8,563 nt of DNA from Planctomycetia bacterium (GTDB taxonomy: Bacteria; Planctomycetota; UBA11346): contig SYDV01000120.1 in the NCBI GenBank assembly GCA_005801395.1, positions 1-8,563 of the forward strand, read 5' to 3'. A model generated the notes under the pieces. That model was not told the origin of the DNA, did not search any database, and saw only the letters and a program-made list of their open reading frames with translations. Both the position numbers and the translations under genes were made by a program. This document shows positions 1 to 8,175 of this stretch, piece after piece. The stretch's first letter is position 1. Each line of letters starts with the position of its first letter.

Positions 1-391
1 CCTCAGCCATCATTAACAGCGTCCATGTCGACCCAGGCGCAGCCCATCAAAGCGAATGCGAACTACCTGACCCACAGCGGCCGCACATGCGGCTGGCGAA
101 CCGGCCGGCGCGGGATTAGGGGAGTAATGCAATCGCCCTGAGACCGTTACGCGCTCGCCTATTGCGTTGGCGGCGGCTCAATACACTGCGGACAACGATT
201 GCGCTACCAACGCAATTCACGTCGTGTGGCTTCAGTGACGCGAGCGACGCAAAGGCCTAATGCCGCGCGGAGCGCTAATATGCGCCAGACGAGCATGGTA
301 TCATTCGTTTGCTCCGAAATTCGCTCACGCTGACAAATTAACTATTGTTTCTATCGTTTAATTATGCGAATAATTCATTCAAACACCCCCA
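1..391. other. Intergenic or unassigned region, no supported gene
   Basis: All three forward frames close early: frame 1 at a TGA at 139-141, frame 2 at a TAA at 14-16 and frame 3 at a TAG at 117-119. At most about 38-46 residues of a gene truncated at the left edge could be present, and neither open stretch looks like a recognisable protein. The first 300 bases are clearly GC-richer than the AT-rich stretch 330-391. No tRNA, rRNA or known RNA signature was recognised. The only structure seen is the inverted repeat at 161-216 and a weak AT-rich hairpin at 360-375. Confidence 0.5.
161..216. repeat. 10-bp perfect inverted repeat with an alternative inner hairpin
   Basis: ATTGCGTTGG at 161-170 is the exact reverse complement of CCAACGCAAT at 207-216, with a 36-base loop. 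The right arm can instead pair with ATTGCG at 198-203, giving a tight hairpin with stem 198-203/211-216 and a 7-base loop. The two folds exclude each other. No neighbouring gene explains this structure, and its function is unknown. Confidence 0.5.
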
Positions 392-400
392 CGTTAAACC
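392..400 (+). repeat. Left 9-bp target-site duplication (CGTTAAACC)
   Basis: CGTTAAACC directly abuts the outer end of the left terminal inverted repeat at 401. The identical 9-mer abuts the outer end of the right terminal inverted repeat at 815-823. Exact direct repeats at both junctions are what a transposition target-site duplication looks like. Confidence 0.75.
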
Positions 401-430
401 CTATTCATTACCCACAAAGTTGGGAGGGCG
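401..430 (+). repeat. Left terminal inverted repeat (30 bp)
   Basis: This repeat starts CTATTCATTACCC and ends GGGAGGGCG. It matches the reverse complement of 785-814 at 29 of 30 positions, the only difference being the fourth base (T here, C in the other copy). The inner 26 bases (405-430) are identical to the reverse complement of 785-810. Confidence 0.85.
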
Positions 431-468
431 GGGGTGGTTCGTCAGTCGATTTCCCCTGCATTTTCTCA

Positions 469-485
469 GAATCCCAACGGGATTC
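469..485. repeat. Small hairpin GAATCCC-AAC-GGGATTC
   Basis: A perfect 7-bp stem with an AAC loop. It is the leftmost of four related hairpins in the element and mirrors the one at 739-753. Confidence 0.7.
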
Positions 486-495
486 CGTCCCACAG

Positions 496-525
496 CCCAG
501 GGTTGCGCGCACGCGCTACCCTGGG
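496..525. repeat. Large hairpin CCCAGGGT-type, left copy
   Basis: CCCAGGGTTGCGCG at 496-509 pairs with CGCGCTACCCTGGG at 512-525 over 14 bp with one T-T mismatch and a 2-base loop. It mirrors the hairpin at 697-727. Confidence 0.75.
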
Positions 526-545
526 AAAGAGTCCCATCGAATGAT

Positions 546-562
546 CAACCCCAACGGGGTTG
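546..562. repeat. Small hairpin CAACCCC-AAC-GGGGTTG
   Basis: A perfect 7-bp stem with an AAC loop, followed by TGTCCT. It mirrors the hairpin at 660-676, where the facing strand also carries the GGACA flank. Confidence 0.7.
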
Positions 563-659
563 TGTCCTCTTGTTTCAATCCCACTCCCAATCCCACGCTT
601 CTCGTTCGTCCCATTCCGTTCCCGATTTGTTTCAACAACCCACGCCGTTCGTTAGGACA

Positions 660-676
660 CAACCCCTTTGGGGTTG
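660..676. repeat. Small hairpin CAACCCC-TTT-GGGGTTG
   Basis: A perfect 7-bp stem with a TTT loop instead of AAC. It lies on the right arm of the element as the counterpart of 546-562. The changed loop with an intact stem suggests that the stem is the conserved part. Confidence 0.7.
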
Positions 677-696
677 CGGTGTTATACCGATCGTTA

Positions 697-727
697 CCCA
701 GGGTAGCGCGGTACGCACAACCCTGGG
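697..727. repeat. Large hairpin CCCAGGGT-type, right copy
   Basis: CCCAGGGT at 697-704 pairs with ACCCTGGG at 720-727 around an inner segment containing AGCGCGGTACGC. It is the inverted counterpart of the hairpin at 496-525, slightly diverged. Confidence 0.7.
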
Positions 728-738
728 CTATGGGACAG

Positions 739-753
739 AACCCCGTTGGGGTT
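739..753. repeat. Small hairpin AACCCC-GTT-GGGGTT
   Basis: A perfect 6-bp stem with a GTT loop. Read on the minus strand the loop is AAC, as in the left-arm hairpins, which is what a mirrored arrangement predicts. Confidence 0.7.
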
Positions 754-784
754 ATAAAAGGCAAGGCCCTCGCGCCCCCAATGA

Positions 785-814
785 CGCCCTCCCAACTTTG
801 TGGGTAATGAGTAG
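785..814 (-). repeat. Right terminal inverted repeat (30 bp)
   Basis: This is the reverse complement of the left terminal repeat at 401-430, with 29 of 30 bases matching. Its outer end (GAGTAG on the plus strand) directly abuts the second copy of CGTTAAACC. Confidence 0.85.
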
Positions 815-823
815 CGTTAAACC
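815..823 (+). repeat. Right 9-bp target-site duplication (CGTTAAACC)
   Basis: Identical, in the same orientation, to 392-400, and immediately outside the right terminal repeat. Removing the element and one copy would restore an uninterrupted sequence 10 bp downstream of the stop codon of the leftward gene. Confidence 0.75.
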
Positions 824-833
824 TTGGGATGTT

Positions 834-2165
834 TTATTTATTGGGTTGAACGGTGACTCGATCTAATTCGCCGAGATCTTTACCTTTGGCATCGCGCACA
901 ATTGCTGAGAGTTGATTGGTCCCCGGTGGTAAACGCACTTCGACATCTAAGCTCATAGCTTCAAAAGGGGTGACATAATACGAACCCAATGGTATTGATT
1001 TAGATGATTTCGCATCGTTTCCAGAGTGCGCTAATAATTCAATCGTGCCACTTTGAAAGACGCCAAAAAGTCCGCGTACATGGGTAACGGCATCGTTCAT
1101 TTGCACGCTTAATCGACGCTTACAAACGCCCACATCGGTGGCGCGCAAAATTGGCCCATCAATGCGCGTGGAATACCAATCGATAACGAAATTTGTACTT
1201 TGATTCGGTGCCAAATCGACCAGAGGACCGAGTACTTCGACTTCAACGTAGGGATCTTTACCCGCGGTGAAGATTTGCAGTGAGCTACCGCCTTCAGGAT
1301 AAGTTGCAGGTTCTGGTGCTTTTTCTACGGTAAATCGTTTAATATACGTAAAACCATGTCGGCTATCAACCGCTGCGACCCAACCTCCGACCACATCTGC
1401 GCCAATTTTTCCTGTGCGACGCAAATAATTAACGGCTACTAAGTTATCACCCATTAGGTTAGACCATTGGCTATCGGCGTAAGCTCGATTCGCACCCGGA
1501 AATGTAAAATAACCGCGTTCGCCAAACATGCTGCGGGGATTCATTGGGAAATAGACCCAACAGGTTTCAGGGTCATCAAGTCCTGCGTGGGTCCCTGGAA
1601 TCTGCGTGACATCCCAATTGGAGACAATTTGTGGTGCCGTTCCGTGATTGGAAATGCGTTGCTCGACGCGAACTCGGGTTGAACCTGGATACACGGTTAA
1701 CGTGCGCGTTAGCGACAGGTCTTTAGCCTGCCATCCTGGAAATGTTTCACGCGGGCTAGTGGCGACCAAGGTTATTTCACCAGCTTCGCCCTTGGTCACC
1801 GTGGTAGTGTAAAGCCCAGCGTCTAAGGTTGGTGCGGGTGGCCAGCCACCCATTCCGCGACGCCAATTTCCTTGTGGTGCTACCCAGGATTTATAGCCGC
1901 CAAAATTATGCCACACACCATCAGCCGCAGGCTCATAGGTGCGGCCAATCTCTGCCGGATTTACCCATAAAAATGGATGGTCTTGTAAATCATATTGCAT
2001 GACCCGTCCGCCAATCGCCGGTACCAATGCGAGCGTAATGTAGTCGTTACGAATAACGTGCGCCTGCCAACCCCATCCAAGGTGGTCATCAACCACCGTA
2101 TATTGCACCGCATCTGCCGCCTGAGCCAACCATGGCAGACAACACAATAGCAATAGGTTTCGCAT
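834..2165 (-). CDS. Secreted DUF4380-type, aldose-epimerase-like protein
   Basis: The 443-residue product starts with a clear signal peptide: MRN, a Leu-rich core and an AQA|AD cleavage site after residue 16. The mature protein is therefore exported to the periplasm or outside. The segment at about residues 36-70, with VPAIGGRVMQY at 48-58, is typical of DUF4380 and galactose-mutarotase-like folds that bind carbohydrate. WHNFGGYKSW (85-94) and WPPAPTLD (108-115) continue the same domain, followed by a beta-sandwich-like stretch to about residue 310. The C-terminal 120 or so residues are unassigned and may be a second beta-rich domain. No reaction can be assigned, and sugar binding is inferred from the fold only. 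No good Shine-Dalgarno sequence precedes the ATG, but the signal peptide supports this start. The gene is transcribed away from lptF and ends about 10 bp from the repeat element. Confidence 0.85.
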   Translation of the reverse strand: MRNLLLLCCLPWLAQAADAVQYTVVDDHLGWGWQAHVIRNDYITLALVPAIGGRVMQYDLQDHPFLWVNPAEIGRTYEPAADGVWHNFGGYKSWVAPQGNWRRGMGGWPPAPTLDAGLYTTTVTKGEAGEITLVATSPRETFPGWQAKDLSLTRTLTVYPGSTRVRVEQRISNHGTAPQIVSNWDVTQIPGTHAGLDDPETCWVYFPMNPRSMFGERGYFTFPGANRAYADSQWSNLMGDNLVAVNYLRRTGKIGADVVGGWVAAVDSRHGFTYIKRFTVEKAPEPATYPEGGSSLQIFTAGKDPYVEVEVLGPLVDLAPNQSTNFVIDWYSTRIDGPILRATDVGVCKRRLSVQMNDAVTHVRGLFGVFQSGTIELLAHSGNDAKSSKSIPLGSYYVTPFEAMSLDVEVRLPPGTNQLSAIVRDAKGKDLGELDRVTVQPNK

Positions 2166-5195: not shown

Positions 5196-6044
5196 ATGAC
5201 TTCGTTACTTATTGCCGGCCCTTTGGCTCTTGATGATTTGCCTGATGCACCTGGCCTACTTGGTGGTGTCGGTGGATATGCCGCAATGGCTGCCGCACCA
5301 TTAGCGCTCACCCAATTATGGTCACGTGGCGGAAAAGATATTTCGCCACAAGTACGTTCTATTTTGGAACGACGAGGCATTGATCTCGCTGGCGTTTCCT
5401 GGAACGGTGAAACCTCGCGCGGAAATAAATTAATTGCCCCGCTCTTATCCGATATCCATCCAACTGATCCTGGTGATGTCACGGCAGTGTTGTTAATTGG
5501 CTTGGACCGCGCCGATTGGCAACGCGCCTGCGACACCATACGCGACTTACCAGGAGCCGAGAACCGCACGGTCGTCGTGGCCCCCTATGGCGTCGATTTG
5601 AGCGACGCCTCGTACTTGGCCGAAGTCTGCAACATGGCCGACGTGCTGGTGATGCCGGTGCCGCGCGCGCTAGAACTCACCAAGGCCGTTGACGCCTTCG
5701 CCGCTGGGCGAGACCTCGGCGCGTTGGGTGCCAAATGCGTCATCTTAACCGCAGGGCCGCTCGGTGGTTTGATCGTGTATCGCCAAAAAGCGACCACCTT
5801 TACCGCTTTGCCGATTGAAACCCTCGAACCAACCGGACTCGGGCCCGTGTTCGCTGGCGCTCTCGCGGCGTGGTTAACCGGCGCTGGTAAAGACGATTTC
5901 CGCGCGATTAAACGCGGCTGCGCCGTCGCGAGCGGTGTTGCAGGCATTTGTGCACAAGGTATTGGCCCGAAAAAATTACTCGCTGCTGATCGCAAAGAAT
6001 ACCTCGAACGCTTCAATCGTTTGCGTCGGGCAGCAAAAGCCTAA
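5196..6044 (+). CDS. PfkB/ribokinase-fold protein, probable pseudokinase
   Basis: The 282-residue product has the layout of the PfkB sugar-kinase family: an N-terminal LLIAGPLALDD strand, a substrate-side GGVGGYAA motif (23-30), a central MADVLVMPVPRALELTK segment (147-163), VILTAGPLGGLIVY (182-195) and the C-terminal PTGLGPVFAGALAAWL (212-227). The last normally reads DTTGAGDxFxGG, where Asp is the catalytic base; here GAGD is GLGP and Asp is Pro (P217). The Mg-binding NxxE motif is also absent (PVPR at that position). The fold is therefore kept but phosphotransfer is doubtful. The start is ATG 5196, preceded by GAGA at 5187-5190; the frame stays open upstream to 5073, inside the nitroreductase gene. 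It lies 52 bp after that gene and 137 bp before a Ser/Thr kinase. Parts of 5580-5880 are GC-richer than the gene's 5' third. It could still be active on an unusual substrate. Confidence 0.8.
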   Translation: MTSLLIAGPLALDDLPDAPGLLGGVGGYAAMAAAPLALTQLWSRGGKDISPQVRSILERRGIDLAGVSWNGETSRGNKLIAPLLSDIHPTDPGDVTAVLLIGLDRADWQRACDTIRDLPGAENRTVVVAPYGVDLSDASYLAEVCNMADVLVMPVPRALELTKAVDAFAAGRDLGALGAKCVILTAGPLGGLIVYRQKATTFTALPIETLEPTGLGPVFAGALAAWLTGAGKDDFRAIKRGCAVASGVAGICAQGIGPKKLLAADRKEYLERFNRLRRAAKA

Positions 6045-7272: not shown

Positions 7273-8175
7273 TTAATCAACAGGTTGAATTTTAAAGAGC
7301 GGACTGGGAAGTTGCTCGCTGGTCAGGTAAAGAGCTTTTCCATCAAGACCGTAACAAATCGCTTCCCCCTGTTTTCGCTTCGGCAATTTAACTACGCGAG
7401 GGGCAAGTGCAAAAGCCTCAGCCCAATTTTGCGTGGGTAAGCGAACATATTCATAAGCATCCACATAAGTAGAAATAATAGCACAATGATTATTGGGCGA
7501 CAGATCACCACCCGTCGTGACCGAAATATTCAACACGGCAATTCGTTTCGCGACGACCTGAACGGGATCGCCGCTCACCGTCAGTGGAAGTTCGTAAACG
7601 GCACATTCTTGGCTCATGGATTTGCTGACCAATAAAATCTTTTTATTAGCAGGATCTACCATGACGGTTTCGCAATTATGCGAGCCGTCTTCATAGCTGA
7701 ATTCAATGCAGGTTTCCACAGTAACGTCAACAGCAATCAATTTATTAGCTCCTGCATTGATCATCGGTTCAAGTACGATGTAAAGCTTCAGACTTTTTCG
7801 TTTGGCTGCGTTATCGCCAACATCGGCAAATAGCAGGTAATTTTTATTATCCAAAGAAAACGATGCCATATCTTCCCAGTCTTTCGCTTCAGCACCGATG
7901 ACATTAAACGTACCTAGGTCATCTCCTTTTTCATTAAAAGCAAAAAATCTAGGTTTATCACCCGAATCATTATGCGTAAAAAAGACATCTGCACGAACAC
8001 GACCAGCAGCAATACCACTGCTTTCAGTAATTTTCTGATTGGCGAGACGGGCAATTTCCACTCCAGGAGCGTAAACAACGGGTTTATTAACTGGGTCTTG
8101 AGCAAACGTGATAGATGGAATCGCGAGAAGACCGAACGAGCACATCAGATGTCGCATACTGCCAAGTCTCTTCAT
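7273..8175 (-). CDS. Secreted beta-propeller-like protein (esterase-like/YncE-type)
   Basis: The 300-residue product begins with a signal peptide (MKRLGSMRHLMCSFGLLAIP, cleavage predicted at TFA|QD after residue 25), so it acts outside the cytoplasm. Conserved pieces match a family of secreted six-bladed propeller proteins, usually annotated as hypothetical: ESSGIA (51-56), THNDSGDKPR (67-76), DWEDMA (99-104), ADVGDN (117-122), TGGDLSP (221-227) and GEAICYGLDGKALYLTSE (270-287). The acidic clusters could bind metal, but no reaction is established. Length is near the low end for the family, with no sign of truncation. GAGGAAA 5 bases upstream supports the ATG at 8175 over the internal ATG at 8157. 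The gene converges on the kinase gene and has its own upstream region with an inverted repeat. Sampled stretches are somewhat AT-richer than the neighbouring genes. Confidence 0.78.
   Translation of the reverse strand: MKRLGSMRHLMCSFGLLAIPSITFAQDPVNKPVVYAPGVEIARLANQKITESSGIAAGRVRADVFFTHNDSGDKPRFFAFNEKGDDLGTFNVIGAEAKDWEDMASFSLDNKNYLLFADVGDNAAKRKSLKLYIVLEPMINAGANKLIAVDVTVETCIEFSYEDGSHNCETVMVDPANKKILLVSKSMSQECAVYELPLTVSGDPVQVVAKRIAVLNISVTTGGDLSPNNHCAIISTYVDAYEYVRLPTQNWAEAFALAPRVVKLPKRKQGEAICYGLDGKALYLTSEQLPSPLFKIQPVD

What the first reader, a model, noticed from the sequence alone, without database searches (positions are those of the whole stretch)
392..823. Complete MITE-like insertion with 30-bp terminal repeats and a perfect 9-bp target duplication
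The 30-bp terminal inverted repeats (401-430 and 785-814, one mismatch) are each directly abutted by the same 9-mer CGTTAAACC in direct orientation. An exact 9-bp match at both predefined junctions is unlikely by chance (about 4 in a million for random sequence). This argues that a palindromic repeat of a kind usually treated as static genomic background is a real transposed unit, moved in trans by a transposase that makes 9-bp duplications.
Basis: partly seen in the sequence, partly recalled or inferred. Interest (0 to 1): 0.72.

Follow-up and report, generated by a model that had tools for sequence, protein, structure and literature searches.

The report
Tn5-type miniature transposon in a hairpin
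A 414-base non-coding stretch in an uncultured planctomycete looks like a stripped-down transposon whose ends match those of Tn5-type jumping genes, and it sits exactly in the middle of a DNA hairpin, a kind of place where transposons of this group often seem to land in this phylum.

Summary
In detail: 30-bp inverted repeats (one mismatch) at 401-430 and 785-814, each abutted by CGTTAAACC. The unit is best read as a MITE of the Tn5/IS50 group (IS4 family). Relative G004 has 21 hits of the 16-bp end (reversed-pattern control 0). One pair bounds a 411-bp non-coding element with a 9/9 duplication; another end begins 93 bp before a truncated Tn5-type transposase frame. Complete Tn5-type elements elsewhere in Planctomycetota have similar sequence at one or both ends and 8-10-bp duplications. 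New here: the duplication lies exactly on the axis of an imperfect hairpin (12/15 pairs; 0 of 16,039 other centres in the joined window reach that). 11 of 24 other insertions are also on an axis at p<0.05; 13 are not. 18 of 21 G004 ends abut half of a REP-like hairpin, and one G004 element carries an intact hairpin of that kind. Not shown: a clean empty site (the sister species lacks the element but its flank has diverged), a partner in the window's own genome (none held), or movement.

The parts
381..391 (.). left arm of the imperfect target hairpin, outside the duplication
   Evidence: 12 of 15 pairs about the centre of the duplication in the joined empty site
392..400 (+). target-site duplication, copy 1 (CGTTAAACC), on the hairpin axis
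401..430 (+). left terminal inverted repeat, CTATTCATTACCCACAAAGTTGGGAGGGCG
   Evidence: 15 of its first 16 bases equal the end beside the Tn5-type reading frame of G004
470..484 (+). internal hairpin H1 (AATCCCAACGGGATT)
   Evidence: I2
496..525 (+). internal hairpin H2 (CCCAGGGT...ACCCTGGG), REP-like
   Evidence: similar motif in G001, G254, G245
546..562 (+). internal hairpin H3 (CAACCCCAACGGGGTTG)
660..676 (-). mirror copy of H3
   Evidence: I3
697..727 (-). mirror copy of H2
   Evidence: I2
739..753 (-). mirror copy of H1
   Evidence: I2, I4
785..814 (-). right terminal inverted repeat, read outward-in CTACTCATTACCCACAAAGTTGGGAGGGCG
   Evidence: its first 16 bases equal the end beside the Tn5-type reading frame of G004 (16/16)
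815..823 (+). target-site duplication, copy 2 (CGTTAAACC)
824..834 (.). right arm of the target hairpin; base 834 is also the last base of the stop codon of the neighbouring gene
834..2165 (-). neighbouring gene whose 3' end faces the element (weak DUF4380 similarity, below Pfam's cut-off)
   Evidence: ortholog in L001 and L002

Best explanation
The stretch 392-823 is a 414-bp non-autonomous transposon (MITE) of the Tn5/IS50 group of the IS4 family plus its 9-bp target duplication. A Tn5-type transposase, supplied in trans, binds the CTAYTCATTACCCACA ends, cuts the unit out and inserts it into a staggered 9-bp cut placed on the axis of a palindromic hairpin, here a terminator-like hairpin just behind the 834-2165 gene. 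The filling is a mirror pair of REP-like hairpin triplets of a sort found in many copies in a relative (G254). Shown by sequence: ends, duplication, axis position, the same end beside a truncated Tn5-type transposase frame in G004, and similar sequence at one or both ends of complete Tn5-type elements elsewhere in the phylum. Inferred: movement in trans, cut-and-paste chemistry, and that the target hairpin acted as a terminator.
For: Exact 9-bp duplication at the TIR edges. The end motif with up to 1 mismatch: 21 hits in G004 against 0 for the reversed-pattern control. G004 C707: 411-bp element, inverted ends, duplication CTCCTGACC 9/9. G004 C616: 128-bp element, duplication 8/9. In G004 C693 the end CTACTCATTACCCACATCT starts at 245 and a frame with the Tn5 DNA-binding domain starts at 338 (PF14706 3.5e-25; NCBIfam IS4/Tn5 N-terminus 4.9e-19; places). 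G124 transposase P0051: PF14706, PF01609, PF02281, NCBIfam IS4 3.4e-89, Tn5 transposase structures E 2e-39. The ends that I compared (both of G171 and G293, one each of G124, G339, G219, G377) match the window's right end at 11-13 of the first 16 letters; a random end beginning CT reaches 10 with probability about 0.01. Hairpin axis: window 12/15 pairs, 0 of 16,039 other centres of the joined sequence reach it. 11 of 24 other two-ended sites at p<0.05 on the exact axis, Fisher combined 6e-14, one median per genome 0.0007. In 8 of the 16 sites, window included, the best axis within 12 nt lies exactly at the duplication's centre (49 positions tried each). 18 of 21 G004 ends abut CCCAGGG plus loop (my count of the rows).
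Against: No genome is held for the window, so no other copy or transposase of the same organism could be examined. The exact end CTRYTCATTACCCACA was found in 4 of 392 phylum genomes: 10 hits in G004 and single hits in three others, about what chance gives. Tn5-type domains were found in 1 of the 23 genomes of the family (the class search drew the same 23). G001 copies are degenerate without a duplication seen. The left ends of the G339, G219 and G092 elements and both ends of G117 do not show the TTACCCACA core. C707 is not in a hairpin (3/15), and 13 of the 25 two-ended sites do not reach p<0.05 on the exact axis. Most G004 ends lie near contig ends with the other side unseen, so their half hairpins could in principle belong to the repeat rather than to the target; only C616 shows both sides. 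The null mixes coding and intergenic flank, where hairpins are commoner. One search required a duplication, so those duplications are not independent evidence.
Confidence: 0.82

Rival explanations
1. A static structured repeat (REP/BIME-like palindrome cluster), whose apparent duplication is just the outer part of one long imperfect palindrome.
For: The inverted repeat continues through the 9-mer into the flanks, the 9-mer is 6/9 self-symmetric, and the core occurs in many copies in G254 and some in G245 where I found no such ends.
Against: Where the 9-mer is not self-symmetric (letters 1, 5, 9) the two copies agree in direct, not inverted, orientation. The same end borders other interiors in G004, with their own duplications in C707 and C616, and borders a Tn5-type transposase frame.
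Confidence: 0.08
2. The element was moved by some other 9-bp-duplicating transposase, not of Tn5 type.
For: 9-bp duplications are made by several families (recalled).
Against: The first 16 letters of the window's right end equal those of the G004 end beside the Tn5-type frame, and several complete Tn5-type elements in the phylum have the TTACCCACA core at one or both ends.
Confidence: 0.06
3. The hairpin position is coincidental: the unit inserted in ordinary intergenic DNA that happens to hold a terminator.
For: 13 of 25 sites are not significantly on a hairpin axis, so the preference is not absolute. Intergenic DNA is rich in hairpins, and the null also contains coding DNA.
Against: The window's target is the best palindrome of the joined window by the 15-pair count (0 of 16,039 centres) and its axis coincides with the duplication's centre to the base. 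Eleven other sites have p<0.05 where about 1.2 of 24 are expected. Among the 16 sites the best local axis is at offset 0 in 8, where fewer than 1 is expected from 49 positions.
Confidence: 0.12
4. A REPIN-like unit moved by a RAYT (IS200/IS605-type tyrosine transposase).
For: REP-like hairpins in mirror order inside the unit.
Against: RAYT/IS200 elements make no target duplication and do not end in 30-bp near-perfect TIRs (recalled). A 9-bp duplication is present.
Confidence: 0.02

Closest known systems
Tn5 / IS50 (IS4 family, IS50 group)
   Same: Ends begin CT and resemble the Tn5 mosaic end CTGTCTCTTATACACATCT (recalled; one search lists it as occurring once in PMC4248319, listing only) against CTACTCATTACCCACATCT in G004. 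9-bp duplication. Transposase with Tn5 DNA-binding, DDE and Tn5 dimerisation domains in a complete relative.
   Different: The window unit codes for no transposase (no Pfam match in three frames overlapping it). Target is a hairpin axis; [quoted passage not shown]
ISRm22 of Sinorhizobium meliloti and other REP-targeting insertion sequences (Tobes and Pareja 2006, PMC1525189; passages seen)
   Same: Inserts at the palindromy axis of REP sequences. The paper files ISRm22 under IS4 and compares it with Tn5.
   Different: 6-bp duplications, complete IS rather than MITE, Proteobacteria; the term 'MITE' does not occur in the main text.
QMITE2 of Coxiella burnetii (review PMC10969869, passages seen; PMC5896051, listing and start of abstract)
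   Same: A MITE with TIRs of 23-29 bp and direct repeats of 7-9 bp that carries a REP, into which another IS (IS1111) has inserted.
   Different: Other phylum, other ends. IS1111 is of another family (recalled); here the inserting element appears to be of the same family as the carrier.
GTAG-type REPs, also reported from Planctomycetes (PMC3733652, passages seen)
   Same: Short extragenic palindromes in many copies, families also in this superphylum.
   Different: There REPs are tied to IS200/IS605-type transposases (RAYTs); here such hairpins are filling and target of Tn5-type elements. Whether the window's hairpins belong to the GTAG families was not tested.

Membership tests
MITE | short, no transposase gene | tested here: met
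   414 bp; three frames overlapping it have no Pfam match up to E 0.1
MITE | terminal inverted repeats | tested here: met
   30 bp, one mismatch
MITE | target-site duplication | tested here: met
   9/9, with the symmetry caveat
MITE | several dispersed copies in one genome | tested here: inconclusive
   own genome not held; degenerate copies in G001, 21 end hits in G004
MITE | ends shared with an autonomous element that moves it | tested here: inconclusive
   End shared with a G004 end beside a truncated Tn5-type frame; no intact partner in the same genome seen; movement not testable
IS4 family, IS50 (Tn5) group | Tn5-type transposase linked to the same ends | tested here: inconclusive
   same end beside a truncated frame in G004; complete transposases have similar, not identical, ends; nothing testable in the window's genome
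IS4 family, IS50 (Tn5) group | about 9-bp duplication | tested here: met
   window 9; relatives 8-10
IS4 family, IS50 (Tn5) group | transposition by hairpin cut-and-paste | not testable with these tools
   needs biochemistry
REPIN/RAYT | no target duplication (recalled) | tested here: not met
   9-bp duplication present
REPIN/RAYT | RAYT (Y1 transposase) gene in the genome | not tested
   own genome not held

The most novel reading that the evidence does not exclude
A self-feeding mobile system: Tn5-type MITEs of Planctomycetota insert on the axis of REP-like hairpins and carry intact hairpins of the same kind inside themselves, so each insertion brings new landing places for the next. This would explain the abundance and nesting of palindromic repeats in these genomes without any tyrosine (RAYT) transposase.
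Probability: 0.35. Interest if true: 0.72.

Novelty: new variant of a known kind. Interest (0 to 1): 0.55.

Why it matters
REP-like palindromes are usually explained by RAYT transposases or left as background. Here a DDE transposase of the best-studied kind (Tn5) is tied to such palindromes in two ways, as filling of its MITEs and as a frequent landing place. A natural Tn5-type enzyme with a hairpin preference would be useful for studying how a transposase reads target shape, and would give a testable origin for palindromic repeats in Planctomycetota.

Tried and rejected
Rfam: no match in the window up to E 1. Plasmid search: 7 records, short matches only, best E 5. Viral contigs: 0 matches of a 19-mer of the TIR. 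Genome contigs: 0 matches of a 21-mer; the allowed second scan used the LptF alignment and gave 4 loci. Paired-end pattern over 392 phylum genomes: 0, both arms exact and thus strict. Exact single end over the same sample: 4 of 392 genomes, 10 hits in G004 and three single hits which I take as chance (about 3 expected by my arithmetic). Search of loci L035-L130 and the window for 9-bp duplications with inverted ends: six rows, of which only the window and C707 (listed twice, overlapping loci) have the Tn5-like ends; the other three rows (L064, and one G254 site listed as L091 and L102) are pieces of palindromes. Empty site: G001's ortholog of the neighbouring gene runs over two contigs (end of L193 and start of L001 share 16 bases, by eye); no such element within the stretch read, but the DNA behind the gene does not align; G002's looks different too (by eye). 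RNA folding of the joined empty site is modest (-9.4 and -14.7 kcal/mol for 67 nt on the two strands), so 'terminator' stays an inference.

Rows dropped before the 25-site count: G092 L142 and L144 (flanks agree at only 7/9, look like swapped flanks) and L149 (only one end found); one search gives L142 and L144 8 and 9 of 15 pairs (fractions 0.021 and 0.010). One search was given 23 of the 30 rows (the other 7 were G092, G171 and G124 copies treated): 11 gave ends with a duplication, 12 gave none (L166, L167, L188, L192, L171, L172, L174, L175, L176, L178, L184, L159). G043 showed one end only. Duplication lengths (8, 9 or 10) were chosen per element by best match. The 15-pair test (16 sites) was replaced by a 12-pair one with a pseudo-count, where the window scores 9/12, p 0.0006, so some other centres do reach it there. 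With tolerance of 1 nt the window has p 0.0029. The 21 ends are not quite the 21 hits: the right end of C707 is out, a second end in C693 (at 132) is in.

Full report
What is there. The window is an 8,563-base contig of an uncultured planctomycete: its LptF protein matches 49 other proteins, two of them named as Planctomycetes. The closest genomes found encode it at 85% (L001, MAG CH-Jul18-104, handle G001) and 70% (L002, handle G002) identity. No genome is held for the window itself. At 401-430 and 785-814 lie 30-bp inverted repeats with one mismatch, and CGTTAAACC stands directly outside each. The unit between is 414 bp, codes for nothing recognisable (three frames), matches no Rfam family, and folds far better than shuffled sequence (z -12.9). 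It holds three hairpins per half, in mirror order.

Is it more than chance. Of duplication lengths 5-12, only 9 fits at these junctions. The three asymmetric letters still agree in direct orientation. The stronger evidence comes from relatives.

Relatives with the same ends. G004 (MAG MGR_bin416) is in the 23-genome family set of G001. In it the 16-bp end CTNNTCATTACCCACA has 21 hits with up to one mismatch, the reversed control 0. C707:5307-5717 is a 411-bp element with inverted ends, a 9/9 duplication (CTCCTGACC) and a different palindromic filling. C616 holds a 128-bp element with an 8/9 duplication inside a hairpin. In C693 the end CTACTCATTACCCACATCT begins at 245 and a reading frame starts at 338, whose product is the Tn5-type DNA-binding domain (PF14706, E 3.5e-25; NCBIfam IS4/Tn5 N-terminus); that frame ends after 62 codons. 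C67 carries the same end and the start of the same frame in another place, up to the contig end.

Complete elements. A search with that fragment found relatives in 9 of 216 phylum genomes, G004 included, and a full-length search in 16 of 392. The G124 transposase has all three Tn5 Pfam domains and matches Tn5 transposase structures at E 2e-39. Ends with duplications were found for two copies in G171 and one in G124, and for four in G293, three in G339, two in G219, one each in G117 and G377; ten of eleven copies of a longer G092 element show both ends. Both ends of G171, G293 and G377, the ends of G124, one end each of G339, G219 and G092, and the single end of G043 carry TTACCCA(C/T)A; the left ends of G339, G219 and G092 and both ends of G117 do not. 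The duplications are 8-10 bp. One search looked at 23 loci, gave nothing for 12 of them, and required a duplication, so its duplications are not independent evidence.

The hairpin axis. When the window's flanks are joined with one copy of CGTTAAACC, 12 of 15 positions pair about the centre of the 9-mer, and none of 16,039 other centres in the joined sequence reaches this. In a second test with 12 positions the window scores 9/12, p 0.0006, and 11 of 24 other two-ended sites have p<0.05 on the exact axis, where about 1.2 are expected (Fisher 6e-14; one median per genome 0.0007). Sites within one genome are not independent, and the null mixes coding and intergenic DNA. A check that does not depend on that null: in 8 of the 16 sites (window included) the best axis within 12 nt on either side falls exactly on the duplication's centre, out of 49 positions. 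Clear cases are G124 (GCTGGGTC-GA-GACCCAGC), G293 (ACCGGTCT-TC-AGACCGGT), G339 (GGTGCGTC-TG-GACGCACC) and G219 (CCCCCTC-CGT-GAGGGGG). The preference is not absolute: C707, one G171 site, two G293, one G339, one G219, G117, G377 and five G092 sites do not reach p<0.05. In G004, 18 of the 21 ends listed are directly preceded by CCCAGGG and a short loop, that is by half of a CCCAGGGCnnn(n)GCCCTGGG hairpin. 46 intact hairpins CCAGGGCn(3-4)GCCCTGG stand in the same genome (control 1; G002 9, G003 3, G001 0). For most of these ends the other side is not seen, because the contig ends nearby.

Element and target share their hairpins. The C707 element (5307-5717) contains an intact CCAGGGCTCACGCCCTGG at 5606-5623. 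In C561 and C67 two ends follow each other 81 and 207 bases apart, each behind a half hairpin, which reads as insertions into hairpins brought by earlier elements. The window's unit carries the related hairpin CCCAGGGT...CCCTGGG twice. Hence the bold reading in the section on the most novel reading.

What was not settled. In G001 the DNA behind the orthologous gene lacks the unit, but it cannot be aligned to the window's flank, so there is no clean empty site. G001's three recognisable relatives of the unit (C58, C94, C36) are degenerate, and I saw no duplication by eye. Whether the target was a working terminator is an inference from its place right behind the stop codon at 834-836; a T-rich run follows the hairpin on the + strand, a weaker one on the gene's own strand.

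Known work. That insertion sequences, including one filed under IS4, hit the axis of REPs is known from Proteobacteria (PMC1525189, passages). A MITE that carries a REP is known in Coxiella (PMC10969869, passages). Palindromic target preference of IS231A (IS4 family) is recalled; the search (at least 4 of 5 terms) listed two papers, neither with the word IS231A. I saw no paper joining Tn5-type MITEs, hairpin axes and Planctomycetota in the listings; the library lacks most subscription journals. Verdict: a new variant of a known kind, well supported as a Tn5-type MITE, with a target preference that deserves a bench test.

Noticed in passing
G254 loci L098-L121, L126-L130 (e.g. L103:560-900, L117:480-1450): Many places in G254 (84 matches on both strands) carry the same kind of internal hairpin core as the window, in several copies framed by other outer sequence (GAGATCAATGGCATGAAGCATT and its mirror) and without Tn5-like ends that I could find; L117 holds two tandem copies about 436 bases apart.
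   Followed up: partly
L036:350-371, L039 (reverse strand near 528), L041:62-83, L061 near 98: A shared string GCTAAGTTTACAGRCATTRCCC lies beside or inside palindromes in both G001 and G004; possibly the end of a further repeat family.
   Followed up: no
G092 loci L141-L151: A 2.3-2.4 kb Tn5-type element with unequal ends (CTGGGGATGACCCAT and CTAATCTTTACCCACA) and a 656-811-codon open frame, longer than Tn5 transposase; copies L142 and L144 look as if flanks had been swapped between hairpin-borne copies.
   Followed up: partly
G293 loci L165, L179, L185, L189: Tn5-type elements with perfect 10-bp duplications; the L185 and L189 targets (GGCTCGACGC, GCGTCGAGGC) are weaker palindromes that look like near mirror images of one another.
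   Followed up: no
window 1-344: No open frame of 80 codons or more is listed in this stretch next to the element; it does not align with the DNA behind the orthologous gene of G001.
   Followed up: no
window 7273-8175 (-): 300-aa protein with no Pfam match up to E 0.001.
   Followed up: no
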